A DNA stretch of 64,000 nt. Origin: Odiellus spinosus (lineage: Eukaryota > Arthropoda > Arachnida > Opiliones > Phalangiidae). The position numbers were made by a program, and so were the translations under genes. This document shows positions 1 through 64,000 of this stretch, in pieces; position 1 is the first letter of the stretch, and every line of letters begins with the position of its first letter. A model generated the notes under the pieces. That model was not told where the DNA came from and ran no database searches. It was given only the letters and a program-made list of their open reading frames with translations. Location: contig OY987230.1 in assembly GCA_963920705.1 (NCBI GenBank), forward strand, positions 372,001 through 436,000, read 5' to 3'.

Positions 1-50
1 AGCGAATTTTGAAAATCTGAAATTTGACTATTTTGATATTCTATGATTTC

Positions 51-364
51 TTGAATTGGCCATATTTTTCTTGTTTTTCAACGGATTTTTGAAAACTCTT
101 ATTATTTAGGCTGTCCATTAATTGCTCTTTCGAATGACTTTGGTTTTGTCTAAATTGCAAAATTGTGACAAATATAAAATTGGTTAAAATTAAGCAAAAA
201 CGCTTAAAAATCCAAGATTATTGGATTCAAATGGACACAAAACTTTTGAATTTTAAGCGATTTAGAAAAAATTAAGAGCACTCGAAAGACCAAATTTTGG
301 TCTATCTAAAAAACAATAGTTTTGGAAAATCCGTTGAAAAACAAGAAAAATATGGCCAATTCAA
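51..364 (+). repeat. Satellite core module (314 bp), reference plus copy
   Basis: This is a representative core. Positions 51-158 and 257-364 form an imperfect inverted repeat of about 108 bp per arm. It is identical over roughly the outer 39 bases (starting ttgaattggccatat) and diverges inward. The centre (159-256) is asymmetric and gives the core its orientation. It holds small local dyads: ttaagc/gcttaa around a six-base loop and aatccaa/ttggatt around a five-base loop. A near-palindrome, agaccaaattttggtct, lies in the right arm at about 287-303. The symmetry point is 207.5, and in-place inversion about that point reproduces the spacing of minus cores. I take no coding function from it. 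Confidence 0.9.
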
Positions 365-433
365 GAAATCATACAATATCAAAATAGTCAAATTTCAGAT
401 TTTAAAAATTCGCTTTTTGATATTAGATGTTTT
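365..433 (+). repeat. Satellite linker module (69 bp), reference copy
   Basis: A 69-bp segment lies between successive cores. It begins gaaatcat and ends gatgtttt. Elsewhere the same segment appears as its exact reverse complement, as at 1-50 and 1123-1191. It has a weak dyad of its own: atatcaaaa near the left meets ttttgatat near the right. Among the first 20 cores, the preceding linker and the core show all four orientation combinations (plus core after either linker 5 and 8 times; minus core 3 and 4 times). Linker and core therefore vary independently. Lengths add to 314 + 69 = 383. Confidence 0.88.
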
Positions 434-1619
434 TTGAATTGTCCATATTTTCCATGTTTTTCAACGGATTTTCCAAAACTCTTGTTTTTTAGATAGACCA
501 ATATTTGCTCTTTCGAGTGGTCTTAATTGTGTATAAATCGCTTAAAATTCAAAAGTTTTGTGTCCATTTGAATCCAATAATCTTGGATTTTTAAGCGTTT
601 TTGCTTAATTTTAACCAATTTTATATTTGTCACAATTTTGCAATTTAGACAAAACCAAAGTCATTCGAAAGAGCAATTAATGGACAGTCTAAATAATAAG
701 AGTTTTCAAAAATCCGTTGAAAAACAAGAAAAATGTGGACAATTCAAGAAATCATAGAATATCAAAATAGTCAAATTTCAGATTTTCAAAATTCGCTTTT
801 TGATATTAGATGTTTTTTGAATTGGCCATATTTTTCTTGTTTTTCAACGGATTTTTGAAAACTCTTATTATTAAGACTGTCCATTAATTGCTCTTTCGAA
901 TGACTTTGTTTTTGTCTAAATTGCAAAATTGTGACAAATATAAAATTGGTTAAAATTAAGCAAAAACGCTTAAAAATCCAAGATTATTGGATTCAAATGG
1001 ACACAAAACTTTTGATTTTTAAGCGATTTAGACAAAATTAAGACCACTCGAAAGAGCAAATATTGGTCTATTTGAAAATCAAGAGTTTTGGAAAATCCGT
1101 TGAAAAACATGGAAAATATGGACAATTCAAAAAACATCTAATATCAAAAAGCGAATTTTGAAAATCTGAAATTTGACTATTTTGATATTGTATGATTTCT
1201 TGAATTGGCCATATTTTTCTTGTTTTTCAACGGATTTTCCAAAACTATTGTTTTTTAGATAGACCAAAATTTGGTCTTTCGAGTGGTCTTAATTTTGTCT
1301 AAATCGCTTAAAATTCAAAAGTTTTGTGTCCATTTGAATCCAATAATCTTGGATTTTTAAGCGTTTTTGCTTAATTTTAACCAATTTTATATTTGTCACA
1401 ATTTTGCAATTTAGACAAAACCAAAGTCATTCGAAAGAGCAATTAATGGACAGTTTAAATAATAAGAGTTTTCAAAAATCCGTTGAAAAACAAGAAAAAT
1501 ATGGCTAATTCAAGAAATCATAGAATATCAAAATAGTCAAATTTCAGATTTTCAAAATTCGCTTTTTGATATTAGATGTTTTTTGAATTGTCCATATTTT
1601 CCATGTTTTTCAACGGATT

Positions 1620-2630
1620 TTTGAAAACTCTTATTATTTAAACTGTCCATTAATTGCTCTTTCGAATGACTTTGGTTTTTTCTAAATTGCAAAATTGTGA
1701 CAAATATAAAATTGGTTAAAATTAAGCAAAAACGCTTAAAAATCCAAGATTATTGGATTCAAATGGACACAAAACTTTTGATTTTTAAGCGATTTAGACA
1801 AAATTAAGACCACTCGAAAGACCAAATTTTGGTCTATCTAAAAAACAAGAGTTTTGGAAAATCCGTTGAAAAACATGGAAAATATGGCCAATTCAAAAAA
1901 CATCTAATATCAAAAAGCGAATTTTGAAAATCTGAAATTTGACTATTTTGATATTCTATGATTTCTTGAATTGGCCATATTTTTCTTGTTTTTCAACGGA
2001 TTTTTGAAAACTCTTATTATTTAGACTGTCCATTAATTGCTCTTTCGAATGACTTTGGTTTGGTCTAAATTGCAAAATTGTGACAAATATAAAATTGGTT
2101 AAAATTAAGCAAAAACGCTTAAAAATCCAAGATTATTGGATTCAAATGGACACAAAACTTTTGAATTTTAAGCGATTTAGACAAAATTAAGACCACTCGA
2201 AAGACCAAATTTTGGTCTATCTAAAAAACCATAGTTTTGGAAAATCCGTTGAAAAACAAGAAAAATATGGCCAATTCAAGAAATCATACAATATCAAAAT
2301 AGTCAAATTTCAGATTTTCAAAATTCGCTTTTTGATATTAGATGTTTTTTGAATTGTCCAAATTTTCCATGTTTTTCAACGGATTTTTAAAAACTCTTAT
2401 TATTTAAACTGTCCATTAATTGCTCTTTCGAATGACTTTGGTTTTGTCTAAATTGCAAAATTGTGACAAATATAAAATTGGTTAAAATTAAGCAAATACG
2501 CTTAAAAATCCAAGATTATTGGATTCAAATGGACACAAAACTTTTGATTTTTAAGCGATTTAGACAAAATTAAGACCACTCGAAAGAGCAAATATTGGTC
2601 TATCTGAAAATCAAGAGTTTTGGAAAATCC
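1620..2630. repeat. Segment shared with 41462-42472, 39842 bp away
   Basis: Rare variants occur together here and nowhere else that I noticed: ggtttggtctaaattgc (about 2057 and 41899), aaaaccatagttttgg (2225 and about 42067) and agcaaatacgcttaaa (about 2490 and 42332). Three plus cores follow each other in both places with the same linker order. The offset is 39842 bp. The right edge is where one copy has ccgtagaaaaacatg and the other ccgttgaaaaacaag. Confidence 0.75.
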
Positions 2631-4213
2631 GTAGAAAAACATGAAAAATATGGACAATTCAAAAAACATCTAATATCAAAAAGCGAATTTTGAAAATCTG
2701 AAATTTGACTATTTTGATATTGTATGATTTCTTGAATTGGCCATATTTTTCTTGTTTTTCAACGGATTTTCCAAAACTATTGTTTTTTAGATAGACCAAA
2801 ATTTGGTCTTTCGAGTGGTCTTAATTTTGTCTAAATCGCTTAAAATTCAAAAGTTTTGTGTCCATTTGAATCCAATAATCTTGGATTTTTAAGCGTTTTT
2901 GCTTAATTTTAACCAATTTTATATTTGTCACAATTTTGCAATTTAGACAAAACCAAAGTCATTCGAAAGAGCAATTAATGGACAGTCTAAATAATAAGAG
3001 TTTTCAAAAATCCGTTGAAAAACAAGAAAAATATGGCCAATTCAAGAAATCATACAATATCAAAATAGTCAAATTTCAGATTTTAAAAATTCGCTTTTTG
3101 ATATTAGATGTTTTTTGAATTGTCCATATTTTCCATGTTTTTCAACGGATTTTCCAAAACTCTTGTTTTTTAGATAGACCAATATTTGCTCTTTCGAGTG
3201 GTCTTAATTTTGTCTAAATCGCTTAAAATTCAAAAGTTTTGTGTCCATTTGAATCCAATAATCTTGGATTTTTAAGCGTTTTTGCTTAATTTTAACCAAT
3301 TTTATATTTGTCACAATTTTGCAATTTAGACAAAACCAAAGTTATTCGAAAGAGCAATTAATGGACAGTCTAAATAATAAGAGTTTTCAAAAATCCGTTG
3401 AAAAACAAGAAAAATGTGGACAATTCAAGAAATCATAGAATATCAAAATAGTCAAATTTCAGATTTTCAAAATTCGCTTTTTGATATTAGATGTTTTTTG
3501 AATTGGCCATATTTTTCTTGTTTTTCAACGGATTTTTGAAAACTCTTATTATTAAGACTGTCCATTAATTGCTCTTTCGAATGACTTTGTTTTTGTCTAA
3601 ATCGCAAAATTGTGACAAATATAAAATTGGTTAAAATTAAGCAAAAACGCTTAAAAATCCAAGATTATTGGATTCAAATGGACACAAAACTTTTGATTTT
3701 TAAGCGATTTAGACAAAATTAAGACCACTCGAAAGAGCAAATATTGGTCTATCTGAAAATCAAGAGTTTTGGAAAATCCGTTGAAAAACATGGAAAATAT
3801 GGACAATTCAAAAAACATCTAATATCAAAAAGCGAATTTTGAAAATCTGAAATTTGACTATATTGATATTCTATGATTTCTTGAATTGGCCATATTTTTC
3901 TTGTTTTTCAACGGATTTTTGAAAACTCTTATTATTTAGACTGTCCATTAATTGCTCTTTCGAATGACTTTGGTTTTGTCTAAATTGCAAAATTGTGACA
4001 AATATAAAATTGGTTAAAATTAAGCAAAAACGCTTAAAAATCCAAGATTATTGGATTCAAATGGACACAAAACTTTTGAATTTTAAGCGATTTAGACAAA
4101 ATTAAGACCACTCGAAAGAGCAAATTTTGGTCTATCTAAAAAACAATAGTTTTGGAAAATCCGTTGAAAAACAAGAAAAATATGGCCAATTCAAAAAACA
4201 TCTAATATCAAAT

Positions 4214-5353
4214 AGCGAATTTTGAAAATCTGAAATTTGACTATTTTGATATTCTATGATTTCTTGAATTGGCCATATTTTTCTTGTTTTTCAACGGATT
4301 TTTGAAAACTCTTATTATTTAGACTGTCCATTAATTGCTCTTTCGAATGACTTTGGTTTTGTCTAAATTGCAAAATTGTGACAAATATAAAATTGGTTAA
4401 AATTAAGCAAAAACGCTTAAAAATCCAAGATTATTGGATTCAAATGGACACAAAACTTTTGAATTTTAAGCGATTTAGAAAAAATTAAGACCACTCGAAA
4501 GACCAAATTTTGGTCTATCTAAAAAACAATAGTTTTGGAAAATCCGTTGAAAAACAAGAAAAATATGGCCAATTCAAGAAATCATACAATATCAAAATAG
4601 TCAAATTTCAGATTTTAAAAATTCGCTTTTTGATATTAGATGTTTTTTGAATTGTCCATATTTTCCATGTTTTTCAACGGATTTTCCAAAACTCTTGTTT
4701 TTTAGATAGACCAATATTTGCTCTTTCGAGTGGTCTTAATTTTGTCTAAATCGCTTAAAATTCAAAAGTTTTGTGTCCATTTGAATCCAATAATCTTGGA
4801 TTTTTAAGCGTTTTTGCTTAATTTTAACCAATTTTATATTTGTCACAATTTTGCAATTTAGACAAAACCAAAGTCATTCGAAAGAGCAATTAATGGACAG
4901 TCTAAATAATAAGAGTTTTCAAAAATCCGTTGAAAAACAAGAAAAATGTGGACAATTCAAGAAATCATAGAATATCAAAATAGTCAAATTTCAGATTTTC
5001 AAAATTCGCTTTTTGATATTAGATGTTTTTTGAATTGGCCATATTTTTCTTGTTTTTCAACGGATTTTTGAAAACTCTTATTATTAAGACTGTCCATTAA
5101 TTGCTCTTTCGAATGACTTTGTTTTTGTCTAAATCGCAAAATTGTGACAAATATAAAATTGGTTAAAATTAAGCAAAAACGCTTAAAAATCCAAGATTAT
5201 TGGATTCAAATGGACACAAAACTTTTGATTTTTAAGCGATTTAGACAAAATTAAGACCACTCGAAAGAGCAAATATTGGTCTATCTGAAAATCAAGAGTT
5301 TTGGAAAATCCGTTGAAAAACATGGAAAATATGGACAATTCAAAAAACATCTA
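4214..5353. repeat. Higher-order duplication, partner of 1-1140
   Basis: Cores at anchors 4434 (plus), 4781 (minus) and 5200 (plus) repeat the order and private variants of the first three cores in the window, 4213 bp upstream. Confidence 0.75.
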
Positions 5354-8300
5354 ATATCAAAAGCGAATTTTGAAAATCTGAAATTTGACTATATTGATAT
5401 TCTATGATTTCTTGAATTGGCCATATTTTTCTTGTTTTTCAACGGATTTTTGAAAACTCTTATTATTTAGACTGTCCATTAATTGCTCTTTCGAATGACT
5501 TTGGTTTTGTCTAAATTGCAAAATTGTGACAAATATAAAATTGGTTAAAATTAAGCAAAAACGCTTAAAAATCCAAGATTATTGGACTCAAATGGACACA
5601 AAACTTTTGAATTTTAAGCGATTTAGACAAAATTAAGACCACTCGAAAGACCAAATTTTGGTCTATCTAAAAAACAATAGTTTTGGAAAATCCGTTGAAA
5701 AACAAGAAAAATATGGCCAATTCAAGAAATCATAGAATATCAAAATAGTCAAATTTCAGATTTTCAAAATTCGCTTTTTGATATTAGATGTTTTTTGAAT
5801 TGTCCATATTTTCCATGTTTTTCAACGTATTTTTGAAAACTCTTATTATTTAAACTGTCCATTAATTGCTCTTTCGAATGACTTTGGTTTTGTCTAAATT
5901 GCAAAATTGTGACAAATATAAAATTGGTTAAAATTAAGCAAAAACGCTTAAAAATCCAAGATTATTGGATTCAAATGGACACAAAACTTTTGATTTTTAA
6001 GCGATTTAGACAAAATTAAGACCACTCGAAAGAGCAAATATTGCTCTATCTAAAAAACAAGAGTTTTGGAAAATCCGTTGAAAAACAAGAAAAATATGGC
6101 CAATTCAAGAAATCATAGAATATCAAAATAGTCAAATTTCAGATTTTCAAAATTCGCTTTTTGATATTAGATGTTTTTTGAATTGTCCATATTTTCCATG
6201 TTTTTCAACGGATTTTTGAAAACTCTTATTATTTAAACTGTCCATTAGTTGCTCTTTCGAATGACTTTGGTTTTGTCTAAATTGCAAAATTGTGACAAAT
6301 ATAAAATTGGTTAAAATTAAGCAAAAACGCTTAAAAATCCAAGATTATTGGATTCAAATGGACACAAAACTTTTGATTTTTAAGCGATTTAGACAAAATT
6401 AAGACCACTCGAAAGACCAAATTTTGGTCTATCTAAAAAACAAGAGTTTTGGAAAATCCGTTGAAAAACATGGAAAATATGGCCAATTCAAGAAATCATA
6501 GAATATCAAAATAGTCAAATTTCAGATTTTCAAAATTCGCTTTTTGATATTAGATGTTTTTTGAATTGTCCATATTTTCCATGTTTTTCAACGGATTTTT
6601 GAAAACTCTTATTATTTAAACTGTCCATTAATTGCTCTTTCGAATGACTTTGGTTTTGTCTAAATTGCAAAATTGTGACAAATATAAAATTGGTTAAAAT
6701 TAAGCAAAAACGCTTAAAAATCCAAGATTATTGGATTCAAATGGACACAAAACTTTTGATTTTTAAGCGATTTAGACAAAATTAAGACCACTCGAAAGAC
6801 CAAATTTTGGTCTATCTAAAAAACAAGAGTTTTGGAAAATCCGTTGAAAATCATGGAAAATAAGGACAATTCAAAAAACATCTAATATCAAAAAGCGAAT
6901 TTTGAAAATCTGAAATTTGACTATTTTGATATTCTATGATTTCTTGAATTGGCCATATTTTTCTTGTTTTTCAACGGATTTTCCAAAACTATTGTTTTTT
7001 AGATAGACCAAAATTTGGTCTTTCGAGTGGTCTTAATTTTGTCTAAATCGCTTAAAAATCAAAAGTTTTGTGTCCATTTGAATCCAATAATCTTGGATTT
7101 TTAAGCGTTTTTGCTTAATTTTAACCAATTTTATATTTGTCACGTTTTGGCAATTTAGACAAAACCAAAGTCATTCGAAAGAGCAATTAATGGACAGTCT
7201 AATTAATAAGAGTTTTCAAAAATCCGTTGAAAAACAAGAAAAATATGGCCAATTCAAGAAATCATAGAATATCAAAATAGTAAATTTTCAGATTTTCAAA
7301 ATTCGCTTTTTGATATTAGATGTTTTTTGAATTGTCCATATTTTCCATGTTTTTCAACGGATTTTCCAAAACTCTTGTTTTTTAGATAGACCAAAATTTG
7401 GTCTTTCGAGTGGTCTTAATTTTGTCTAAATCGCTTAAAAATCAAAAGTTTTGTGTCCATTTGAATCCAATAATCTTGGATTTTTAAGCGTTTTTGCTTA
7501 ATTTTAACCAATTTTATATTTGTCACAATTTTGCAATTTAGACAAAACCAAAGTCATTCGAAAGAGCAATTAATGGACAGTTTAAATAATAAGAGTTTTC
7601 AAAAATCCGTTGAAAAACATGGAAAATATGGACAATTCAAAAAACATCTAATATCAAAAAGCGAATTTTGAAAATCTGAAATTTGACTATTTTGATATTC
7701 TATGATTTCTTGAATTGGCCATATTTTCCATGTTTTTCAACGGATTTTCCAAAACTCTTGTTTTTTAGACCAAAATTTGGTCTTTCGAGTGGTCTTGATT
7801 TTGTCTAAATCGCTTAAAAATCAAAAGTTTTGTGTCCATTTGAATCCAATAATCTTGGATTTTTAAGCGTTTTTGCTTAATTTTAACCAATTTTATATTT
7901 GTCACAATTTTGCAATTTAGACAAAACCAAAGTCATTCGAAAGAGCAATTAATGGACAGTTTAAATAATAAGAGTTTTCAAAAATCCGTTGAAAAACATG
8001 GAAAATATGGACAATTCAAAAAACATCTAATATCAAAAAGCGAATTTTGAAAATCTGAAATTTGACTATTTTGATATTGTATGATTTCTTGAATTGCCCA
8101 TATTTTTCTTGTTTTTCAACGGATTTTCCAAAACTCTTGTTTTTTAGATAGACCAACATTTGGTCTTTCGAGTGGTCTTAATTTTGTCTAAATCGCTTAA
8201 AAATTAAAAGTTTTGTGTCCATTTGAATCCAATAATCTTGGATTTTTAAGCGTTTTTGCTTAATTTTAACCAATTTTATATTTGTCACAATTTTCCAATT

Positions 8301-11300
8301 TAGACAAAACCAAAGTCATTCGAAAGAGCAATTAATGGACAGTTTAAATAATAAGAGTTTTCAAAAATCCGTTGAAAAACATGGAAAATATGGACAATTC
8401 AAAAAACATCTAATATCAAAAAGCGAATTTTGAAAATCTGAAATTTGACTATTTTGATATTCTATGATTTCTTGAATTGGCCATATTTTTCTTGTTTTTC
8501 AACGCATTTTTGAAAACTCTTATTATTTCAACTGTCCATTAATTGCTCTTTTGAATGACTTTGGTTTTGTCTAAATTGCAAAATTGTGACAAATATAAAA
8601 TTGGTTAAAATAAAGCAAAAACGCTTAAAAATCCAAGATTATTGGATTCAAATGGACACAAAACTTTTGATTTTTAAGCGATTTAGACAAAATTAAGACC
8701 ACTCGAAAGAGCAAATATTGGTCTATCTGAAAATCAAGAGTTTTGGAAAATCCGTTGAAAAACATGGAAAATATGGACAATTCAAAAAACATCTAATATC
8801 AAAAAGCGAATTTTTAAAATCTGAAATTTGACTATTTTGATATTGTATGATTTCTAGAATTGGCCATATTTTTCTTGTTTTTCAACGGATTTTCCAAAAC
8901 TATTGTTTTTTAGATAGACCAAAATTTGGTCTTTCGAGTGGTCTTAATTTTGTCTAAATCGCTTAAAATTCAAAAGTTTTGTGTCCATTTGAATCCAATA
9001 ATCTTGGATTTTTAAGCGTTTTTGCTTAATTTTAACCAATTTTATATTTGTCACGTTTTGGCAATTTAGACAAAACCAAAGTCATTCGAAAGAGCAATTA
9101 ATGGACAGTCTAAATAATAAGAGTTTTCAAAAATCCGTTGAAAAACAAGAAAAATATGGCCAATTCAAGAAATCATAGAATATCAAAATAGTCAAATTTC
9201 AGATTTTCAAAATTCGCTTTTTGATATTAGATGTTTTTTGAATTGTCCATATTTTCCATGTTTTTCAACGGATTTTCCAAAACTCTTGTTTTTTAGATAG
9301 ACCAAAATTTGGTCTTTCGAGTGCTCTTAATTTTGTCTAAATCGCTTAAAAATCAAAAGTTTTGTGTCCATTTGAATCCAATAATCTTGGATTTTTAAGC
9401 GTTTTTGCTTAATTTTAACCAATTTTATATTTGTCACAATTTTGTAATTTAGACAAAACAAAGTCATTCGAAAGAGCAATTAATGGACAGTTTAAATAAT
9501 AAGAGTTTTCAAAAATCCGTTGAAAAACATGGAAAATATTGACAATTCAAAAAACATCTAATATCAAAAAGCGAATTTTGAAAATCTGAAATTTGACTAT
9601 TTTGATATTGTATGATTTCTTGAATTGGCCATATTTTTCTTGTTTTTCAACGGATTTTCCAAAACTATTGTTTTTTAGATAGACCAAAATTTGGTCTTTC
9701 GAGTGGTCTTAATTTTGTCTAAATCGCTTAAAATTCAAAAGTTTTGTGTCCATTTGAATCCAATAATCTTGGATTTTTAAGCGTTTTTGCTTAATTTTAA
9801 CCAATTTTATATTTGTCACAATTTGGCAATTTAGACAAAACCAAAGTCATTCGAAAGAGCAATTAATGGACAGTCTAAATAATAAGTGTTTTCAAAAATC
9901 CGTTGAAAAACAAGAAAAATATGGCCAATTCAAGAAATCATAGAATATCAAAATAGTCAAATTTCAGATTTTCAAAATTCGCTTTTTGATATTAGATGTT
10001 TTTTGAATTGTCCATATTTTCCATGTTTTTCAACAGATTTTCCAAAACTCTTGTTTTTTAGATAGACCAAAATTTGGTCTTTCGAGTGGTCTTAATTTTG
10101 TCTAAATCGCTTAAAAATAAAAAGTTTTGTGTCCATTTGAATCCAATAATCTTGGATTTTTAAGCGTTTTTGCATAATTTTAACCAATTTTATATTTGTC
10201 ACAATTTTGCAATTTAGACAAAACCAAAGTCATTCGAAAGAGCAATTAATGGACAGTTTAAGTAATAAGAGTTTTCAAAAATCCGTTGAAAAACATGGAA
10301 AATATGGACAATTCAAAAAACATCTAATATCAAAAAGCGAATTTTGAAAATCTGAAATTTGACTATTTTGATATTCTATGATTTCTTGAATTGGCCATAT
10401 TTTTCTTGTTTTTCAACGGATTTTTGAAAACACTTATTATTTAGACTGTCCATTAATTGCTCTTTCGAATGACTTTGGTTTTGTCTAAATTGTAAAATTG
10501 TGCCAAATATAAAATTGGTTAAAATTAAGCAAAAACGCTTAAAAATCCAAGATTATTGGATTCAAATGGACACAAAACTTTTGAATTTTAAGCGATTTAG
10601 ACAAAATTAAGACCACTCGAAAGAGCAAATATTGGTCTATCTAAAAAACAAGAGTTTTGGAAAATCCGTTGAAAAACATGGAAAATATGGACAATTCAAA
10701 AAACATCTAATATCAAAAAGCGAATTTTTAAAATCTGAAATTTGACTATTTTGATATTGTATGATTTCTTGAATTGGCCATATTTTTCTTGTTTTTCAAC
10801 GGATTTTCCAAAACTATTGTTTTTTAGATAGACCAAAATTTGGTCTTTCGAGTGGTCTTAATTTTGTCTAAATCGCTTAAAATTCAAAAGTTTTGTGTCC
10901 ATTTGAATCCAATAATCTTGGATTTTTAAGCGTTTTTGCTTAATTTTAACCAATTTTATATTTGTCACAATTTGGCAATTTAGACAAAACCAAAGTCATT
11001 CTAAAGAGCAATTAATGGACAGTCTAAATAATAAGAGTTTTCAAAAATCCGTTGAAAAACAAGAAAAATATGGCCAATTCAAGAAATCATAGAATATCAA
11101 AATAGTCAAATTTCAGATTTTCAAAATTCGCTTTTTGATATTAGATGTTTTTTGAATTGTCCATATTTTCCATGTTTTTCAACGGATTTTTGAAAACTCT
11201 TATTATTTAAACTGTCCATTAATTGCTCTTTCGAATGACTTTGGTTTTGTCTAAATTGCAAAATTGTGACAAATATAAAATTGGTTAAAATTAAGCAAAA

Positions 11301-48577: not shown

Positions 48578-48589
48578 TTTTAACTTTTT

Positions 48590-48950: not shown

Positions 48951-49083
48951 CGTGCATAACTTTTTAATTAATGGTTTGCGCTCAAAAAGTTTTGCACCAT
49001 AATTTTTTTCTCATTTTTCTCTTTCCAAATAATGCCATCTCACCTCCAAAATGTTTTCAGTAGCTATTCTACAATCTACCCAT
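48951..49083 (-). repeat. Inner fold-back arm, right
   Basis: This pairs with 48445-48577 without net length change. The G-rich insertions of the left arm are much reduced here, where the complement reads cacctccaaaa. Confidence 0.65.
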
Positions 49084-49162
49084 GTAGGTATATAAAAAAA
49101 TCTTTCACGTCAATACATAGTCAAGAAATCAAGATACCACCGTATACTTTTCGGTTGAACCG

Positions 49163-49178
49163 TATAGCTTTACCTTAA
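49163..49178 (-). repeat. 16-bp inverted repeat, right
   Basis: This is the reverse complement of 48059-48074, ending in TTAA. Confidence 0.75.
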
Positions 49179-49657: not shown

Positions 49658-49913
49658 ACCTTTGATAATTCTCCCGTTCCTAATGAAAATAACTTGTTTT
49701 CTATGGGAAGGAGAATGCTATCCAAGCTCGCAACATCTTCTTCACTCTCTTAAATCCAAAGCCGGAAAAACAATTGTATGGTACTCTTTTTCTTTTGACA
49801 ACAACCACGCCTCTAATATCCTGTGACTTATCAAAAATCTATTCAAACATTTGGTATTAGGTATGCCACTTAAGGGCCAACTTAATTCAAACTAAAAAAT
49901 AATAATAATTTTT
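49658..49913. repeat. 256-bp tandem duplication, copy A
   Basis: It starts accttt and includes attctcccgttcc, gaaaataacttgttttctat, ctatccaagct, ctttttcttttgacaac, accacgcct and taagggccaact. The same landmarks follow in copy B at +256 bp with many substitutions and small indels, so the duplication is old compared with the satellite copies. Confidence 0.85.
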
Positions 49914-50170
49914 ACCTTCGAGTATTCTCCCGTTCCCAATGAAAATAACTTGTTTTCTATGGGAAGTAGAATGCTATCCAAGCTTGCAATTAACATTTTT
50001 TTCACTCTTAAATCCAAGGTCGGACTTCATTTTATGGGACCCTTTTTCTTTTGACAACCAACCACGCCTTTTCAGTAATCCATTCAAACCTTGGGGGTTA
50101 GGTATTGCCAATTAAGGGCCAACTAAGGGCCCACTTAATACAAACTTAAAAATAAGAATACTTTTTAAGA
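49914..50170. repeat. 256-bp tandem duplication, copy B
   Basis: This is the second copy of 49658-49913. Near its end it reads taagggccaactaagggccc, a small internal repeat missing from copy A. The minus open frame 50112-50294 crosses its edge and has no recognisable domain. Confidence 0.85.
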
Positions 50171-50773
50171 TTACTTGAAAGGAATTCAATTTAAGAGGGA
50201 AGAGATTCGTCTTAACACATACAACGAGAAACCCACTTATTATCAACATAAAAAAAACTTTGCCACTCAGAGGGAAATAAAGCATAGACGACACAAACTT
50301 AATACCAACTAAAATCGACGTAAGATTTAGTTATTAATAAGTTGTTCTTGAGATAAATATTTCCAAAAACTTTAAAACCATTATGCGAAAGAAAACAAAC
50401 TTGATACAAAATTAAAAGAAAAAAAAGAATATTTCTTACTATTTCTTAACTGCGCCAAACTTAATACCAACTATAAGCTAGTATTGAGTTACTTGTTATT
50501 AAGTTGTCTGTTAGAAAAGTAATTATTAAAACTGCTAAAACCTATTTTGCAAAATAGAACCAACTTAATACACACTTAAAAAACACAGAAAATTCCTGAA
50601 TACTTTAAAGCAACTAATTGCTAACCTGTAAAAATTAACTTTTTTACTGCCAACTGGAAACCAACCTTTTGCTACTATTAAAAGTTAACCAAAATATATG
50701 GACAACTTGAGACTACTAATAACAAAGATAATACCTACTTATAATGCACATTCATACTAAATGCATACCAAAA
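50171..50773. repeat. Right subterminal region with scattered caacttaatac motifs
   Basis: Copies of aaacttaataccaact and aaccaacttaatac lie at about 50296, 50460 and 50560, in the same orientation as the 36-bp array near the left end but not in tandem. Inverted forms (gttattaataagttg, ttattaagttg) occur at about 50330 and 50490, and one lies at about 47089 near the left end. Both ends therefore share a subterminal motif family. No gene was seen. Confidence 0.6.
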
Positions 50774-50796
50774 GCCAACTCTTTTTTTGGTAAGGG
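50774..50796 (-). repeat. Right terminal inverted repeat
   Basis: This is the reverse complement of the left end, ending ttttttggtaaggg, with three mismatches in the inner nine bases. Confidence 0.88.
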
Positions 50797-50798
50797 TG
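50797..50798. other. Right copy of 2-bp target-site duplication (TG)
   Basis: The matching TG follows the right inverted repeat, and the satellite core then continues as gacagtctaaat. Confidence 0.75.
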
Positions 50799-53639: not shown

Positions 53640-54520
53640 TTCAACGGATTTTTGAAAACTCTTATTATTTAAACTGTCCATTAATTGCACTTTCGAATGA
53701 CTTTGTTTTGTCTAAATTGCAAAATTGTGACAAATATAAAATTGGTTAAAATTAAGCAAAAACGCTTAAAAATCCAAGATTACTGGATTCAAATGGACAC
53801 AAAACTTTTCATTTTTAAGCGATTTAGACAAAATTAAGACCACTCGAAAGACCAAATTTTGGTCTATCTAAAAAACAAGAGTTTTGGAAACTCCGTTGAA
53901 AAACATGGAAAATATGGACAATTCAAAAAACATCTAATATCAAAAAGCGAATTTTGAAAATCTGAAATTTGACTATTTTGATATTCTATGATTTCTTGAA
54001 TTGGCCATATTTTTCTTGTTTTTCAACGGATTTTTGAAAACTCTTATTATTTAGACTGTCCATTAATTGCTCTTTCGAATGACTTTGGTTTTGTCTAAAT
54101 TGCAAAATTGTGACAAATATAAAATTGGTTAAAATTAAGCAAAAACGCATAAAAATCCAAGATTATTGGATTCAAATGGACACAAAACTTTTGAATTTTA
54201 AGCGATTTAGACAAAATTAAGACCACTCGAAAGACCAAATTTTGGTCTATCTAAAAAACAATAGTTTTGGAAAATCCGTTGAAAAACAAGAAAAATATGG
54301 CCAATTCAAGAAATCATAGAATATCAAAATAGTCAAATTTCAGATTTTCAAAATTCGCTTTTTGATATTAGATGTTTTTTGAATTGTCCATATTTTCCAT
54401 GTTTTTCAACGGATTTTCCAAAACTCTTGATTTTCAGATAGACCAATATTTGCTCTTTCGAGTGGTCTTAATTTTGTCTAAATCGCTTAAAAATCAAAAG
54501 TTTTGTGTCCATTTGAATCC
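53640..54520. repeat. Fifteen-unit-offset duplication (partner about 59384-60264)
   Basis: The order of cores plus, plus, minus (anchors 53783, 54166, 54513) and the variants gactttgttttgtctaaatt and acgcataaaaatcc recur at anchors 59527, 59910 and 60257, an offset of 5744 bp (15 units less one base). Confidence 0.65.
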
Positions 54521-55199
54521 AATAATCTAGGATTTTTAAGCGTTTTTGCTTAATTTTAACCAATTTTATATTTGTCACAATTTTGCAATTTAGACAAAAA
54601 CAAAGTCATTCGAAAGTGCAATTAATGGACAGTCTTAATAATAAGAGTTTTCAAAAATCCGTTGAAAAACATGGAAAATATGGACAATTCAAAAAACATC
54701 TAATATCAAAAAGCGAATTTTGAAAATCTGAAATTTGACTATTTTGATATTCTATGATTTCTTGAATTGGCCATATTTTTCTTGTTTTTCAACGGATTTT
54801 CCAAAACTATTGTTTTTTAGATAGACCAAAATTTGGTCTTTCGAGTTGTCTTAATTTTGTCTAAATCGCTTAAAATTCAAAAGTTTTGTGTCCATTTGAA
54901 TCCAATAATCTTGGATTTTTAAGCGTTTTTGCTTAATTTAACCAATTTTATATTTGTCACGTTTTGGCAATTTAGACAAAACCAAAGTCATTCGAAAGAG
55001 CAATTAATGGACAGTCTAAATAATAAGAGTTTTCAAAAATCTGTTGAAAAACAAGAAAAATATGGCCAATTCAAGAAATCATAGAATATCAAAATAGTCA
55101 AATTTCAGATTTTCAAAATTTGCTTTTTGATATTAGATGTTTTTTGAATTGTCCATATTTTCCATGTTTTTCAACGGATTTTTGAAAACTCTTATTATT

Positions 55200-56170
55200 A
55201 AGACTGTCCATTAATTGCTCTTTCGAATGACTTTGTTTTTGTCTAAATTGCAAAATTGTGACAAATATAAAATTGGTTAAAATTAAGCAAAAACGCTTAA
55301 AAATCCAAGATTATTGGATTCAAATGGACACAAAACTTTTGATTTTTAAGCGATTTAGACAAAATTAAGACCACTCGAAAGACCAAATTTTGGTCTATCT
55401 AAAAAACAATAGTTTTGGAAAATCCGTTGAAAAACAAGAAAAATATGGCCAATTCAAGAAATCATAGAATATCAAAATAGTCAAATTTCAGATTTTCAAA
55501 ATTCGCTTTTTGATATTAGATGTTTTTTGAATTGTCCATATTTTCCATGTTTTTCAACGGATTTTTGAAAACTCTTATTATTAAGACTGTCCATTAATTG
55601 CTCTTTCGAATTACTTTGTTTTTGTCTAAATTGCAAAATTGTGACAAATATAAAATTGGTTAAAATTAAGCAAAAACGCTTAAAAATCCAAGATTATTGG
55701 ATTCAAATGGACACAAAACTTTTGATTTTTAAGCGATTTAGACAAAATTAAGACCACTCGAAAGACCAAATTTTGGTCTATCTAAAAAACAATAGTTTTG
55801 GAAAATCCGTTGAAAAACAAGAAAAATATGGCCAATTCAAGAAATCATAGAATATCAAAATAGTCAAATTTCAGATTTTCAAAATTCGCTTTTTGATATT
55901 AGATGTTTTTTGAATTGTCCATATTTTCCACGTTTTTCAACGGATTTTTGAAAACTCTTATTATTAAGACTGTCCATTAATTGCTCTTTCGAATTACTTT
56001 GTTTTTGTCTAAATTGCAAAATTGTGACAAATATAAAATTGGTTAAAATTAAGCAAAAACGCTTAAAAATCCAAGATTATTGGATTCAAATGGACACAAA
56101 ACTTTTGATTTTTAAGCGATTTAGAAAAAATTAAGACCACTCGAAAGATCAAATTTTGGTCTATCTAAAA
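55200..56170. repeat. Recent head-to-tail run of near-identical plus units
   Basis: Three plus cores (anchors 55314, 55697, 56080) follow each other with the same linker orientation, the same attattaagactg start and, in two of them, the private change cgaattactttg. This is an ordinary single-unit tandem amplification inside a mostly mixed-orientation array. Confidence 0.7.
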
Positions 56171-57959
56171 AACAAGAGTTTTGGAAAATCCGTTGAAAAA
56201 CATGGAAAATATGGACAATTCAAAAAACATCTAATATCAAAAAGCGAATTTTGAAAATCTGAAATTTGACTATTTTGATATTCTATGATTTCTTGAATTG
56301 GCCATATTTTTCTTGTTTTTCAACGGATTTTTGAAAACTCTTATTATTTAGACTGTCCATTAATTGCTCTTTCGAATGACTTTGGTTTTGTCTAAATTGC
56401 AAAATTGTGACAAATATAAAATTGGTTAAAATTAAGCAAAAACGCTTAAAAATCCAAGATTATTGGATTCAAATGGACACAAAACTTTTGAATTTTAAGC
56501 GATTTAGACAAAATTAAGACCACTCGAAAGACCAAATTTTGGTCTATCTAAAAAACAATAGTTTTGGAAAATCCGTTGAAAAACAAGAAAAATATGGCCA
56601 ATTCAAGAAATCATAGAATATCAAAATAGTCAAATTTCAGATTTTCAAAATTCGCTTTTTGATATTAGATGTTTTTTGAATTGTCCATATTTTCCATGTT
56701 TTTCAACGGATTTTCCAAAACTCTTGATTTTCAGATAGACCAATATTTGCTCTTTCGAGTGGTCTTAATTTTGTCTAAATCGCTTAAAAATCAAAAGTTT
56801 TGTGTCCATTTGAATCCAATAATCTTGGATTTTTAAGCGTTTTTGCTTAATTTTAACCAATTTTATATTTGTCACAATTTTGCAATTTAGACAAAACCAA
56901 AGTCATTCGAAAGAGCAATTAATGGACAGTCTAAATAATAAGAGTTTTCAAAAATCCGTTGAAAAACAAGAAAAATATGGCCAATTCAAGAAATCATAGA
57001 ATATCAAAATAGTCAAATTTCAGATTTTCAAAATTCGCTTTTTGATATTAGATGTTTTTTGAATTGTCCATATTTTCCATGTTTTTCAACGGATTTTCCA
57101 AAACTCTTGATTTTCAGATAGACCAATATTTGCTCTTTCGAGTGGTCTTAATTTTGTCTAAATCGCTTAACAATCAAAAGTTTTGTGTCCATTTGAATCC
57201 AATAATCTTGGATTTTTAAGCGTTTTTGCTTAATTTTAACCAATTTTATATTTGTCACAATTTTGCAATTTAGACAAAAACAAAGTCATTCGAAAGAGCA
57301 ATTAATGGACAGTCTTAATAATAAGAGTTTTCAAAAATCCGTTGAAAAACAAGAAAAATATGGCCAATTCAAAAAACATCTAATATCAAAAAGGGAATTT
57401 TGAAAATCTGAAATTTGACTATTTTGATATTCTATGATTTCTTGAATTGGCCATATTTTTCTTGTTTTTCAACGGATTTTTGAAAACTCTTATTATTTAG
57501 ACTGTCCATTAATTGCTCTTTCGAATGACTTTGGTTTTGTCTAAATTGCAAAATTGTGACAAATATAAAATTGGTTAAAATTAAGCAAAAACGCTTAAAA
57601 ATCCAAGATTATTGGATTCAAATGGACACAAAACTTTTGAATTTTAAGCGATTTAGACAAAATTAAGACCACTCGAAAGACCAAATTTTGGTCTATCTAA
57701 AAAACAATAGTTTTGGAAAATCCGTTGAAAAACATGGAAAATATGGAGAATTCAAAAAACATCTAATATCAAAAAGCGAATTTTTAAAATCTGAAATTTG
57801 ACTATTTTGATATTGTATGATTTCTTGAATTGGCCATATTTTTCTTGTTTTTCAACGGATTTTCCAAAACTATTGTTTTTTAGATAGACCAAAATTTGGT
57901 CTTTCGAGTGGTCTTAATTTTGTCTAAATCGCTTAAAATTCAAAAGTTTTGTGTCCATT

Positions 57960-59015
57960 TGAATCCAATAATCTTGGATTTTTAAGCGTTTTTGCTTAAT
58001 TTTAACCAATTTTATATTTGTCACAATTTTGCAATTTAGACAAAAACAAAGTCATTCGAAAGAGCAATTAATGGACAGTCTTAATAATAAGAGTTTTCCA
58101 AAATCCGTTGAAAAACAAGAAAAATATGGCCAATTCAAAAAACATCTAATATCAAAAAGCGAATTTTTAAAATCTGAAATTTGACTATTTTGATATTGTA
58201 TGATTTCTTGAATTGGCCATATTTTTCTTGTTTTTCAACGGATTTCCCAAAACTATTGTTTTTTAGATAGACCAAAATTTGGTCTTTCGAGTGGTCTTAA
58301 TTTTGTCTAAATCGCTTAAAATTCAAAAGTTTTGTGTCCATTTGAATCCAATAATCTTGGATTTTTAAGCGTTTTTGCTTAATTTTAACCAATTTTATAT
58401 TTGTCACAATTTTGCAATTTAGACAAAACCAAAGTCATTCGAAAGAGCAATTAATGGACAGTCTAAATAATAAGAGTTTTCAAAAATCCGTTGAAAAACA
58501 AGAAAAATATGGCCAATTCAAGAAATCATAGAATATCAAAATAGTCAAATTTCAGATTTTCAAAATTCGCTTTTTGATATTAGATGTTTTTTGAATTGTC
58601 CATATTTTCCATGTTTTTCAACGGATTTTCCAAAAAGTCTTGTTTTTTAGATAGACCAAAATTTGGTCTTTCGAGTGGTCTTAATTTTGTCTAAATCGCT
58701 TAAAAATCAAAAGTTTTGTGTTCATTTGAATCCAATAATCTTGGATTTTTAAGCGTTTTTGCTTTATTTTAACCAATTTTATATTTGTCACAATTTTGCA
58801 ATTTAGACAAAACCAAAGTCATTCGAAAGAGCAATTAATGGACAGTCTAAATAATAAGAGTTTTCAAAAATCCGTTGAAAAACAAGAAAAATATGGCCAA
58901 TTCAAGAAATCATAGAATATCAAAATAGTCAAATTTCAGATTTTCAAAATTCGCCTTTTGATATTAGATGTTTTTTGAATTGTCCATATTTTCCATGTTT
59001 TTCAACGGATTTTCC
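57960..59015. repeat. Twelve-unit-offset duplication, copy 1 (partner 62555-63610)
   Basis: Rare variants gagttttccaaaatcc (58091 and 62686), gatttcccaaaac (58241 and 62836), ccaaaaagtcttg (58630 and 63225) and gctttattttaacc recur at 4595 bp, about 12 units. Minus cores lie at matching anchors in both copies. The match ends where one has cttgttttttag and the other cttgattttcag. Confidence 0.8.
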
Positions 59016-62000
59016 AAAACTCTTGTTTTTTAGATAGACCAAAATTTGGTCTTTCGAGTGGTCTTAATTTTGTCTAAATCGCTTAAAAATCAAAAGTTTT
59101 GTGTCCATTTGAATCCAATAATCTTGGATTTTTAAGCGTTTTTGCTTAATTTTAACCAATTTTATATTTGTCACAATTTTGCAATTTAGACAAAACCAAA
59201 GTCATTCGAAAGAGCAATTAATGGACAGTTTAAATAATAAGAGTTTTCAAAAATCCGTTGAAAAACATGGAAAATATGGACAATTCAAAAAACATCTAAT
59301 ATCAAAAAGCGAATTTTGAAAATCTGAAATTTGACTATTTTGATATTCTATGATTTCTTGAATTGGCCATATTTTTCTTGTTTTTCAACGGATTTTTGAA
59401 AACTCTTATTCTTTAAACTGTCCATTAATTGCTCTTTCGAATGACTTTGTTTTGTCTAAATTGCAAAATTGTGACAAATATAAAATTGGTTAAAATTAAG
59501 CAAAAACGCTTAAAAATCCAAGATTATTGGATTCAAATGGACACAAAACTTTTGATTTTTAAGCGATTTAGACAAAATTAAGACCACTCGAAAGACCAAA
59601 TTTTGGTCTATCTAAAAAACAAGAGTTTTGGAAAATCCGTTGAAAAACATGGAAAATATGGACAATTCAAAAAACATCTAATATCAAAAAGCGAATTTTG
59701 AAAATCTGAAATTTGACTATATTGATATTCTATGATTTCTTGAATTGGCCATATTTTTCTTGTTTTTCAACGGATTTTTGAAAACTCTTATTATTTAGAC
59801 TGTCCATTAATTGCTCTTTCGAATGACTTTGGTTTTGTCTAAATTGCAAAATTGTGACAAATATAAAATTGGTTAAAATTAAGCAAAAACGCATAAAAAT
59901 CCAAGATTATTGGATTCAAATGGACACAAAACTTTTGAATTTTAAGCGATTTAGACAAAATTAAGACCACTCGAAAGACCAAATTTTGGTCTATCTAAAA
60001 AACAATAGTTTTGGAAAATCCGTTGAAAAACAAGAAAAATATGGCCAATTCAAGAAATCATAGAATATCAAAATAGTCAAATTTCAGATTTTCAAAATTC
60101 GCTTTTTGATATTAGATGTTTTTTGAATTGTCCATATTTTCCATGTTTTTCAACGGATTTTCCAAAACTCTTGATTTTCAGATAGACCAATATTTGCTCT
60201 TTCGAGTGGTCTTAATTTTGTCTAAATCGCTTAAAAATCAAAAGTTTTGTGTCCATTTGAATCCAATAATCTTGGATTTTTAAGCGTTTTTGCTTAATTT
60301 TAACCAATTTTATATTTGTCACAATTTTGCAATTTAGACAAAACCAAAGTCATTCGAAAGAGCAATTAATGGACAGTCTAAATAATAAGAGTTTTCAAAA
60401 ATCCGTTGAAAAACAAGAAAAATATGGCCAATTCAAGAAATCATAGAATATCAAAATAGTCAAATTTCAGATTTTCAAAATTCGCTTTTTGATATTAGAT
60501 GTTTTTTGAATTGTCCATATTTTCCATGTTTTTCAACGGATTTTCCAAAACTCTTGATTTTCAGATAGACCAATATTTGCTCTTTCGAGTGGTCTTAATT
60601 TTGTCTAAATCGCTTAAAAATCAAAAGTTTTGTGTCCATTTGAATCCAATAATCTTGGATTTTTAAGCGTTTTTGCTTAATTTTAACCAATTTTATATTT
60701 GTCACAATTTTGCAATTTAGACAAAAACAAAGTCATTCGAAAGAGCAATTAATGGACAGTCTTAATAATAAGAGTTTTCAAAAATCCGTTGAAAAACAAG
60801 AAAAATATGGACAATTCAAAAAACATCTAATATCAAAAAGCGAATTTTTAAAATCTGAAATTTGACTATTTTGATATTGTATGATTTCTTGAATTGGCCA
60901 TATTTTTCTTGTTTTTCAACGGATTTTCCAAAACTATTGTTTTTTAGATAGACCAAAATTTGGTCTTTCGAGTGGTCTTAATTTTGTCTAAATCGCTTAA
61001 AATTCAAAAGTTTTGTGTCCATTTGAATCCAATAATCTTGGATTTTTAAGCGTTTTTGCTTAATTTTAACCAATTTTATATTTGTCACAATTTTGCAATT
61101 TAGACAAAACCAAAGTCATTCGAAAGAGCAATAAATGGACAGTCTAAATAATAAGAGTTTTCAAAAATCCGTTGAAAAACAAGAAAAATATGGCCAATTC
61201 AAGAAATCATAGAATATCAAAATAGTCAAATTTCAGATTTTCAAAATTCGCTTTTTGATATTAGATGTTTTTTGAATTGGCCATATTTTTCTTGTTTTTC
61301 AACGGATTTTTGAAAACTCTTATTATTTAAACTGTCCATTAATTGCACTTTCGAATGACTTTGTTTTGTCTAAATTGCAAAATTGTGACAAATATAAAAT
61401 TGGTTAAAATTAAGCAAAAACGCTTAAAAATCCAAGATTATTGGATTCAAATGGACACAAAACTTTTGATTTTTAAGCGATTTAGACAAAATTAAGACCA
61501 CTCGAAAGACCAAATTTTGGTCTATCTAAAAAACAAGAGTTTTGGAAAATCCGTTGAAAAACATGGAAAATATGGACAATTCAAAAAACATCTAATATCA
61601 AAAAGCGAATTTTGAAAATCTGAAATTTGACTATTTTGATATTCTATGATTTCTTGAATTGGCCATATTTTTCTTGTTTTTCAACGGATTTTTGAAAACT
61701 CTTATTATTTAGACTGTCCATTAATTGCTCTTTCGAATGACTTTGGTTTTGTCTAAATTGCAAAATTGTGACAAATATAAAATTGGTTAAAATTAAGCAA
61801 AAACGCTTAAAAATCCAAGATTATTGGATTCAAATGGACACAAAACTTTTGAATTTTAAGCGATTTAGACAAAATTAAGACCACTCGAAAGACCAAATTT
61901 TGGTCTATCTAAAAAACAATAGTTTTGGAAAATCCGTTGAAAAACATGGAAAATATGGACAATTCAAAAAACATCTAATATCAAAAAGCGAATTTTGAAA

Positions 62001-62554
62001 ATCTGAAATTTGACTATTTTGATATTCTATGATTTCTTGAATTGGCCATATTTTTCTTGTTTTTCAACGGATTTTTGAAAACACTTATTATTTAGACTGT
62101 CCATTAATTGCTCTTTAGAATGACTTTGGTTTTGTCTAAATTGAAAAATTGTGACTAATATAAAATTGGTTAAAATTAAGCAAAAACGCTTAAAAATCCA
62201 AGATTATTGGATTCAAATGGACACAAAACTTTTGAATTTTAAGCGATTTAGACAAAATTAAGACCACTCGAAAGACCAAATTTTGGTCTATCTAAAAAAC
62301 AATAGTTTTGGAAAATCCGTTGAAAAACAAGAAAAATATGGCCAATTCAAGAAATCATACAATATCAAAAAAGTCAAATTTCAGATTTTCAAAATTCGCT
62401 TTTTGATATTAGATGTTTTTTGAATTGTCCATATTTTCCATGTTTTTCAACGGATTTTCCAAAACTCTTGATTTTCAGATAGACCAATATTTGCTCTTTC
62501 GAGTGGTCTTAATTTTGTCTAAATCGCTTAAAAATCAAAAGTTTTGTGTCCATT

Positions 62555-63610
62555 TGAATCCAATAATCTTGGATTTTTAAGCGTTTTTGCTTAATTTTAA
62601 CCAATTTTATATTTGTCACAATTTTGCAATTTAGACAAAAACAAAGTCATTCGAAAGAGCAATTAATGGACAGTCTTAATAATAAGAGTTTTCCAAAATC
62701 CGTTGAAAAACAAGAAAAATATGGCCAATTCAAAAAACATCTAATATCAAAAAGCGAATTTTTAAAATCTGAAATTTGACTATTTTGATATTGTATGATT
62801 TCTTGAATTGGCCATATTTTTCTTGTTTTTCAACGGATTTCCCAAAACTATTGTTTTTTAGATAGACCAAAATTTGGTCTTTCGAGTGGTCTTAATTTTG
62901 TCTAAATCGCTTAAAATTCAAAAGTTTTGTGTCCATTTGAATCCAATAATCTTGGATTTTTAAGCGTTTTTGCTTAATTTTAACCAATTTTATATTTGTC
63001 ACAATTTTGCAATTTAGACAAAACCAAAGTCATTCGAAAGAGCAATTAATGGACAGTCTAAATAATAAGAGTTTTCAAAAATCCGTTGAAAAACAAGAAA
63101 AATATGGCCAATTCAAGAAATCATAGAATATCAAAATAGTCAAATTTCAGATTTTCAAAATTCGCTTTTTGATATTAGATGTTTTTTGAATTGTCCATAT
63201 TTTCCATGTTTTTCAACGGATTTTCCAAAAAGTCTTGTTTTTTAGATAGACCAAAATTTGGTCTTTCGAGTGGTCTTAATTTTGTCTAAATCGCTTAAAA
63301 ATCAAAAGTTTTGTGTCCATTTGAATCCAATAATCTTGGATTTTTAAGCGTTTTTGCTTTATTTTAACCAATTTTATATTTGTCACAATTTTGCAATTTA
63401 GACAAAACCAAAGTCATTCGAAAGAGCAATTAATGGACAGTCTAAATAATAAGAGTTTTCAAAAATCCGTTGAAAAACAAGAAAAATATGGCCAATTCAA
63501 GAAATCATAGAATATCAAAATAGTCAAATTTCAGATTTTCAAAATTCGCTTTTTGATATTAGATGTTTTTTGAATTGTCCATATTTTCCATGTTTTTCAA
63601 CGGATTTTCC
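62555..63610. repeat. Twelve-unit-offset duplication, copy 2
   Basis: This is the partner of 57960-59015 at +4595 bp. It differs by a few single bases, for example gtgtcc here where copy 1 has gtgttc. Confidence 0.8.
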
Positions 63611-63952
63611 AAAACTCTTGATTTTCAGATAGACCAATATTTGCTCTTTCGAGTGGTCTTAATTTTGTCTAAATCGCTTAAAAATCAAAAGTTTTGTGTC
63701 CATTTGAATCCAATAATCTTGGATTTTTAAGCGTTTTTGCTTAATTTTAACCAATTTTATATTTGTCACAATTTTGCAATTTAGACAAAAACAAAGTCAT
63801 TCGAAAGAGCAATTAATGGACAGTCTTAATAATAAGAGTTTTCAAAAATCCGTTGAAAAACAAGAAAAATATGGACAATTCAAAAAACATCTAATATCAA
63901 AAAGCGAATTTTTAAAATCTGAAATTTGACTATTTTGATATTGTATGATTTC

Positions 63953-64000
63953 TTGAATTGGCCATATTTTTCTTGTTTTTCAACGGATTTTCCAAAACTA
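63953..64000 (-). repeat. Partial satellite core at window edge
   Basis: The first 48 bases of a core, at the position predicted by the lattice. The ccaaaacta form is typical of minus cores. Confidence 0.85.

What the first reader, a model, noticed from the sequence alone, without database searches (positions are those of the whole stretch)
1..64000. Satellite built of two modules that flip independently in place on a fixed 383-bp lattice
Cores (314 bp) and linkers (69 bp) each occur in both orientations, in all four combinations, yet anchor spacing takes only the values 383, 347 and 419 (347 + 419 = 2 x 383). Inverting a core about its own centre moves the anchor by 36 bases, which gives exactly these values. 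The array therefore behaves like a row of switches: orientation changes while register is kept. Ordinary head-to-tail satellites, or satellites with a fixed inverted dimer, do not do this. The inverted ends shared by all modules would be the natural crossover sites.
Basis: partly seen in the sequence, partly recalled or inferred. Interest (0 to 1): 0.8.

Follow-up and report, generated by a model that had tools for sequence, protein, structure and literature searches.

The report
Satellite DNA with inverting modules
A long insect-like repeat array is built of two hairpin-like pieces, each found in either direction without breaking the 383-base rhythm, most likely because rare exchanges between short mirror-image sequences turned pieces round and ordinary array copying then spread and shuffled the result.

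Summary
The window (apart from one inserted element) is a 383-bp satellite of two alternating modules, K and L, bounded by one inverted 18-mer, TGTTTTTCAACGGATTTT. Each occurs about equally in both orientations, in all combinations, with register kept. The exchange borders are 254 + 129 bp, not 314 + 69. The switch reading is only partly right. In 11 sampled loci elsewhere in the genome the satellite is head-to-tail, and genome-wide 14.6% of exact junctions are flipped. Flipped junctions carry founder haplotypes that fade with distance, so most look inherited from few events. Modules between parallel neighbours still favour the presumed ancestral orientation (K 121:41, L 146:66). Of 407 switch points 317 lie in the 18-mer and 88 in neighbouring 8-9-bp identical tracts, which argues against a site-specific recombinase. 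One clean in-place inversion is visible: K at 1221-1492 is reversed against eight paralogues with 98-99% identical flanks. Best reading: rare homology-driven exchange or template switching between the arms of quasi-palindromic modules, then amplification and exchange between copies. Whether inverted neighbours speed further flips rests on one event and is not settled. Sampled euchromatic copies lie in foldback-like elements. A new variant of a known kind.

The parts
1..47029 (.). Satellite array, 383-bp unit of alternating K and L modules in mixed orientation
50797..64000 (.). Satellite array continued after the inserted element
72..343 (+). First complete K (core) module incl. both 18-bp anchors (272 bp; 254 anchor to anchor)
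326..472 (+). First complete L (linker) module incl. both anchors (147 bp; 129 anchor to anchor)
838..1109 (+). K module; the stretch one base off it (839-1110) folds as one long imperfect hairpin in DNA (z -9.97)
1092..1238 (-). L module; single strand folds as a long hairpin (z -11.65); left neighbour of the inverted K
1221..1492 (-). K module inverted in place relative to eight paralogous copies; flanked by inverted copies of L
13725..13871 (.). L module in opposite orientation to its counterpart at 21388-21534 (147/147 when inverted); candidate in-place L inversion, short context, inconclusive
21388..21534 (.). Counterpart of the L module at 13725-13871
25347..25443 (.). Irregular interval: opposite anchors only 79 bp apart
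35511..35592 (+). Irregular interval: two like-oriented anchors 64 bp apart
39021..39166 (+). Irregular interval: three like-oriented anchors 64 bp apart (64-bp tandem repeat)
47030..50796 (.). Inserted element with ends CCCTTACCAAAAAA...TTTTTTGGTAAGGG and a 2-bp TG duplication, interrupting a K module

Best explanation
The satellite unit is two quasi-palindromes, K and L, that share one perfect 18-bp inverted end. In one class of arrays, rare homology-driven exchanges between these inverted arms (probably polymerase template switching or recombination at stalled forks, mostly within the 18-mer, sometimes in neighbouring 8-9-bp identical tracts) inverted a module in place and so created two new junction types (Ll-Kr and Lr-Kl). 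Amplification of larger repeats and exchange between homologous modules then spread and shuffled the four junction types. Where neighbouring L modules are inverted to each other, K lies between longer arms and may invert again more readily; this step rests on one event. Register is kept because every exchange joins homologous positions. Shown: anatomy, founder haplotypes, exchange intervals, one in-place inversion, non-flipping sister loci. Inferred: the enzyme pathway, the order of events, the rates.
For: Shared 18-mer ends and alternation. Head-to-tail phase elsewhere: 0 of 234 scored junctions flipped in 11 loci on C1-C5, and all 25 modules of L041 canonical. Genome-wide exact junctions: canonical 52,111 + 44,127, flipped 9,174 + 7,330. 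Founder signature at Ll-Kr junctions: the base 10 bp inside K is A in 86% (4% at Lr-Kr); further in, 88 v 32% at +32, 85 v 32% at +38, 74 v 27% at +79; on the L side 60 v 5% at -33 and 35 v 1% at -63. Exchange intervals: 317 of 407 in the 18-mer, 59 in an 8-bp tract, 17 and 12 in two 9-bp tracts, 2 elsewhere. Preference for one orientation between parallel neighbours. In-place K inversion: 270-271/272 when inverted, 172-173/272 when direct, flanks 377-381 of 383-384, against eight paralogues. Flips among near-identical K pairs: 0 of 134 with parallel L neighbours, 9 of 48 where just the adjacent L's are mirror images. Single-strand hairpins, z -10 to -14. Precedent: spacer inversion and arm homogenisation between inverted repeats, PMC8604942 (passages).
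Against: The nine flipped pairs trace to two sibling copies, probably one event. With three matching modules a side the count is 1 of 20 at mirror depth 1 but 0 of 42 at depth 2, so more flipping with longer inverted arms is not borne out. A 12-bp identical tract at +35 holds no switch point while an 8-bp tract holds 59, so tract length alone does not predict exchange. 3 of 177 near-identical L pairs with parallel K neighbours differ in orientation. 17 flipped K pairs with parallel neighbours differ by 6-7 bases, which fits replacement by another module. The head-to-tail C5 loci have fewer exact anchors (139 of 234 found, against 296 of 318 in the window), so they are an imperfect control. Some exchange classes could be later conversion of arms. 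Pathway and number of founding events are not measured.
Confidence: 0.58

Rival explanations
1. Each module is an independent, still active switch that flips in place at its inverted ends, so that orientation is at or near equilibrium.
For: Near-equal orientation counts; identical module haplotypes present in both orientations, for example 22 + and 21 - for the commonest L; one clear in-place inversion; five L pairs that match better inverted, in short contexts.
Against: 0 of 134 near-identical K pairs flipped with parallel neighbours; 121:41 and 146:66 orientation bias; founder haplotypes at flipped junctions; no flips in the sampled head-to-tail loci.
Confidence: 0.17
2. A site-specific recombinase or a transposase-derived protein acts on the 18-mer.
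For: The 18-mer is near-invariant (296 of 318 exact) and holds 317 of 407 switch points; a 12-bp identical tract nearby holds none.
Against: 90 of 407 switch points lie outside it; it is also the longest identical tract of the arms; the window holds one ORF of 90 aa or more, which overlaps tandem repeats of the inserted element; sampled head-to-tail loci with the same consensus site do not flip. No search for a recombinase gene was made in the genome.
Confidence: 0.09
3. The mixed orientation was produced only by amplification of a few inverted-repeat blocks, for example foldback-element copies, with essentially no single-module inversion.
For: Founder haplotypes; five sampled euchromatic copies lie in large inverted repeats; neighbouring L modules tend to alternate (lag-1 correlation -0.31).
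Against: Flipped junctions keep the lattice and nearly all switch inside short identical tracts, whereas the turn-over point of the foldback copies is a 244-bp off-lattice join; in-place inversion of K at 1221-1492.
Confidence: 0.13
4. Assembly artefact.
For: No reads were available to test it.
Against: Mixed orientation appears on C6, C112, C130 and C27, and gap-poor blocks of 3.36 kb align at 98.5-98.6% between the window and stretches of C6, C112 and C130; the C5 loci of the same unit are not mixed.
Confidence: 0.03

Closest known systems
Spacer inversion and arm homogenisation by template switching between short inverted repeats (yeast; PMC8604942, passages read)
   Same: Short perfect inverted arms, the sequence between them inverts in place, arms can take on each other's bases, reversible.
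   Different: There single loci with very short spacers in coding DNA; here spacers of 111 and 236 bp repeated tens of thousands of times in a satellite and spread by array turnover.
Macro-dyad symmetries of Tribolium satellites (PMC13081366; abstract, passages and first part of the discussion read)
   Same: Satellite with internal dyad symmetry, orientation changes inside Mb-scale arrays, conserved inversion sites.
   Different: There kilobase-long inverted subarrays with a few special inversion sites; here single modules of 129 and 254 bp on one lattice.
Foldback transposon Tetris and its TIR-220 satellite in Drosophila virilis (PMC4079207, abstract read)
   Same: A foldback-like element carrying tandem units that also form satellite arrays; modular, rearranged forms.
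   Different: Other repeat length and species; module flipping is not mentioned in the abstract; whether the element here gave rise to the satellite is open.
Inverted-repeat recombination at a replication fork barrier (yeast; PMC8748988, abstract read)
   Same: Closely linked inverted repeats recombine and half of the recombinants invert the segment between them.
   Different: Engineered locus in yeast, not a satellite.
Small hairpin-associated inversions of chloroplast DNA (search listing, otherwise recalled)
   Same: Loop between short inverted repeats inverts in place.
   Different: Single plastid loci, not tandem arrays.

Membership tests
Satellite DNA | Long tandem arrays of a conserved non-coding unit | tested here: met
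   383-bp unit over the window and 90 kb around it, 126,013 exact anchors genome-wide; one ORF of 90 aa or more in the window, inside the inserted element
Head-to-tail satellite | All units in one orientation | tested here: not met
   407 of 972 scored junctions flipped in the mixed arrays; met in the 11 sampled C1-C5 loci, 0 of 234
Inverted-repeat spacer inversion by template switching or recombination | Perfect inverted arms longer than 9 bp with the spacer inverted between sister copies | tested here: met
   18-bp arms; K 1221-1492 inverted against eight paralogues
Inverted-repeat spacer inversion by template switching or recombination | Arms exchange or homogenise in patches | tested here: met
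   Switch points in four tracts; 8 of 284 Lr-Kr arms show a three-site r-l-r patch
Inverted-repeat spacer inversion by template switching or recombination | Flip rate rises with length of the inverted arms | tested here: inconclusive
   K pairs: 0 of 134 at mirror depth 0, 9 of 48 at depth 1 (one event); with longer context 0 of 89, 1 of 20, 0 of 42 at depths 0, 1, 2
Inverted-repeat spacer inversion by template switching or recombination | Polymerase template switch as the cause | not testable with these tools
   needs a molecular assay
Site-specific inversion system (Hin/FLP type, recalled) | Crossover confined to one recognition site | tested here: not met
   90 of 407 switch points outside the 18-mer
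Site-specific inversion system (Hin/FLP type, recalled) | Dedicated recombinase | not tested
   ORFs of the window only; no genome-wide recombinase search was made
Tribolium-type macro-dyad satellite | Multi-kilobase inverted subarrays meeting at conserved inversion sites | tested here: not met
   orientation changes at single-module scale in the window and 90 kb around it; lag-1 correlation of L -0.31
Foldback element (euchromatic copies only) | Long inverted arms and target-site duplication | tested here: met
   1054-nt arms 100% complementary in L023, the one copy tested; 9-bp duplications readable in 3 of 5 copies
CENP-B box satellite | Motif with TTCG and CGGG cores (recalled) | tested here: not met
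   18-mer lacks both cores, read by eye from the consensus; the rest of the unit was not scanned

The most novel reading that the evidence does not exclude
A natural satellite in which single modules invert in place as living switches: inverted neighbours act as arms, so every flip changes the flip rate of the next module, making a self-scrambling array whose orientation string records its own inversion history and may alter chromatin or centromere structure between individuals.
Probability: 0.18. Interest if true: 0.8.

Novelty: new variant of a known kind. Interest (0 to 1): 0.6.

Why it matters
Satellite theory mostly treats arrays as head-to-tail repeats changed by unequal exchange. Here orientation is a second, countable character on a fixed lattice, with non-flipping sister loci in the same genome for comparison. 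That lets one measure, from sequence alone, how often short inverted repeats invert DNA in heterochromatin, where the exchanges fall, and how such changes spread through arrays.

Tried and rejected
Site-specific recombination at the 18-mer as sole mechanism: rejected because switch points also lie in three neighbouring identical tracts; the empty 12-bp tract at +35 speaks a little the other way. Fully independent flipping: rejected by founder haplotypes and orientation bias. Linkage disequilibrium across versus within modules: at 40-80 bp mean r2 was 0.046 across canonical junctions, 0.155 across flipped ones, 0.066 within L and 0.101 within K, so no hot spot could be claimed; it was the lead to the founder test. 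Flips in palindromic contexts at least as deep as the flank compared (20 of 204 K pairs with D<=2 at F=2, 2 of 57 at F=3) were left out because an inverted copy of the whole block gives the same picture. Pairs differing by 3 or more bases were also kept apart (mirror depth 1, F=2: 24 same, 5 flipped). In-place inversion of L: five pairs checked, inconclusive because the context is short and L haplotypes are common. Irregular intervals between anchors were dropped before junctions were counted, among them 375-, 377/379-, 244-, 104- and 142/150-bp ones in the C1-C5 loci. Species: 399 residues of cytochrome oxidase I read openly with the invertebrate mitochondrial code and look insect-like by recall; no eukaryote database was at hand and the one nucleotide search, against plasmids, gave no match. 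Text searches: pieces of the unit, '383 bp', 'orientation switches' and 'inverted monomers' with their companion terms found no paper; others (20 of 1,832 listed; 12 of 14) listed papers none of whose titles or abstract openings describes single-module flipping on a lattice. That does not prove absence from print.
Full report
What is there. Apart from an inserted element at 47030-50796 it is one satellite with a 383-bp period. An 18-mer, TGTTTTTCAACGGATTTT, occurs 318 times, 296 exact and 22 with one mismatch; regular spacing breaks at five intervals. It cuts the array into L modules (129 bp from anchor to anchor) and K modules (254 bp). There are 157 L (84 +, 73 -) and 155 K (75 +, 80 -) and all eight neighbour combinations, 30 to 50 times each. 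K-centre spacing lies within 2 bases of 383 in 150 of 154 intervals.

Both modules are quasi-palindromes. Their consensus sequences match their own reverse complements at 94 of 147 (L) and 176 of 272 (K) positions, with the outer 18 positions perfect. Single strands fold into long hairpins: z -9.97 for a K and -11.65 and -14.02 for two L.

Sister loci. In 11 sampled loci of C1 to C5 all 234 scored junctions are of the two canonical kinds; irregular intervals were not scored. All 25 modules of L041 on C5 are canonical too. These loci have the same 18-mer in their consensus, but single anchors are less often exact: 139 of 234 in L017-L021 and 58 of 67 in L022-L027 (up to 3 mismatches allowed), against 296 of 318 in the window. 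Their modules score 0.90-0.97 in string similarity to the window's consensus. Genome-wide, exact 30-mers across the junctions give 52,111 and 44,127 canonical and 9,174 and 7,330 flipped cases, 14.6% flipped. The capped lists run in contig order; those of the flipped kinds begin on C6, those of the canonical kinds on C1, so no exact flipped junction seems to precede C6. At the flipped fraction of the sampled mixed arrays (407 of 972) this means roughly 7-8 Mb of mixed array (inference).

Founders. I collected 972 junctions from 154 kb around the window and four 10-kb stretches of C6, C112, C130 and C27. At Ll-Kr junctions the base 10 bp inside K is A in 86%, against 4% at Lr-Kr; the contrast is 88 to 32% at +32, 85 to 32% at +38 and 74 to 27% at +79, and on the L side (against Ll-Kl) 60 to 5% at -33 and 35 to 1% at -63. 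Lr-Kl junctions fall into at least two haplotypes (102 and 50 of 202), and 55 of 202 switch at a second point. This is the pattern of few founding events followed by recombination. Exchange points by diagnostic sites: 317 of 407 in the 18-mer, 59 in an 8-bp identical tract at -22 to -13, 17 in a 9-bp tract at -13 to -3, 12 in a 9-bp tract at +2 to +13, 2 elsewhere; a 12-bp tract at +35 holds none. Exchange is thus not confined to one site, nor set by tract length alone, and some classes could be later conversion of arms.

How free is flipping? If flips were frequent, a module between two parallel neighbours would be canonical half the time. It is canonical in 121 of 162 cases for K and 146 of 212 for L (binomial p 2e-10 and 4e-8, not corrected for shared descent; in the window alone 36 of 51 and 50 of 79). 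K lies between inverted L copies in 320 of 482 cases, and the K modules between two left ends of L are mostly one haplotype (121 of 159). Among pairs of K with two matching modules on each side and at most two differences, orientation differs in 0 of 134 with parallel L neighbours and in 9 of 48 where just the adjacent L modules are mirror images. With three matching modules a side the numbers are 0 of 89, 1 of 20, and 0 of 42 where two modules on each side are mirror images. The last figure does not support more flipping with longer arms. Deeper palindromes are ambiguous and were set aside. L pairs with parallel K neighbours differ in orientation in 3 of 177 (0 of 61 with the longer context); the five L pairs examined match well when inverted, but over short contexts.

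One inversion in place. K at window 1221-1492 matches the eight paralogous copies taken at 270-271 of 272 bases when inverted and at 172-173 when not, while 383-bp flanks match at 377-381 of 383-384 on both sides. Another copy, 4,213 bp upstream (C6:369008), shares the window's orientation. Against L037 the agreement extends over nine modules on one side and five on the other. So at least one single-module inversion with register kept is shown. It lies between inverted copies of L, which offer arms longer than the 18-mer.

Mechanism. The most economical account is rare homology-driven exchange between inverted arms, by template switching or recombination at stalled forks, followed by amplification and exchange that spread and shuffled the junctions. 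Template switching between short inverted repeats is reported to invert spacers and homogenise arms in yeast, with spacer inversion seen only with arms longer than 9 bp (PMC8604942, passages read). Recombination at a fork barrier inverts the segment between inverted repeats in half of the recombinants (PMC8748988, abstract). No recombinase is needed, though none was searched for in the genome.

Comparison. Tribolium satellites show dyad symmetry at the level of kilobase subarrays with conserved inversion sites (PMC13081366; abstract, passages and first part of the discussion). The present case differs in scale: single modules on one lattice. Five sampled euchromatic copies (L023-L027) share an element with inverted ends; in the one tested, L023, the arms are perfect over 1054 nt, and 9-bp target duplications are readable in three of five. 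This resembles the foldback element Tetris, which supplied a satellite in Drosophila virilis (PMC4079207, abstract). Whether the element gave rise to the satellite or took it up is open.

Limits. No raw reads, no second individual, an unnamed species, and only about 0.3 Mb of the genome besides the window could be read.

Noticed in passing
47030-50796: Inserted element with inverted ends CCCTTACCAAAAAA, a 2-bp TG duplication, internal 36/72-bp tandem repeats and a CCTAA tract; its one ORF of 90 aa or more has 109 aa; family not identified.
   Followed up: partly
L023:2594-7459 and counterparts in L024-L027: Five euchromatic copies of the satellite lie in a foldback-like element of about 4.3-5.8 kb with GGCTCCGTCAACTTGGCC ends, internal repeats about 149 bp apart in the arms of L023, and 9-bp target duplications in three of five.
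   Followed up: partly
35511-35592; 39021-39166: Like-oriented anchors 64 bp apart, once and twice in tandem, off the lattice.
   Followed up: no
25347-25443: Two opposite anchors only 79 bp apart, probably a truncated K module.
   Followed up: no
L017-L021, L041 (C5:1.80-1.89 Mb): Array of the same unit, head-to-tail in all scored units, with recurrent 375- and 104+150-bp intervals in L018-L021.
   Followed up: partly
G000:C17: Nine partial matches to cytochrome oxidase I, several with TAG stops, on a contig of at least 4.39 Mb; perhaps nuclear copies of mitochondrial DNA.
   Followed up: no
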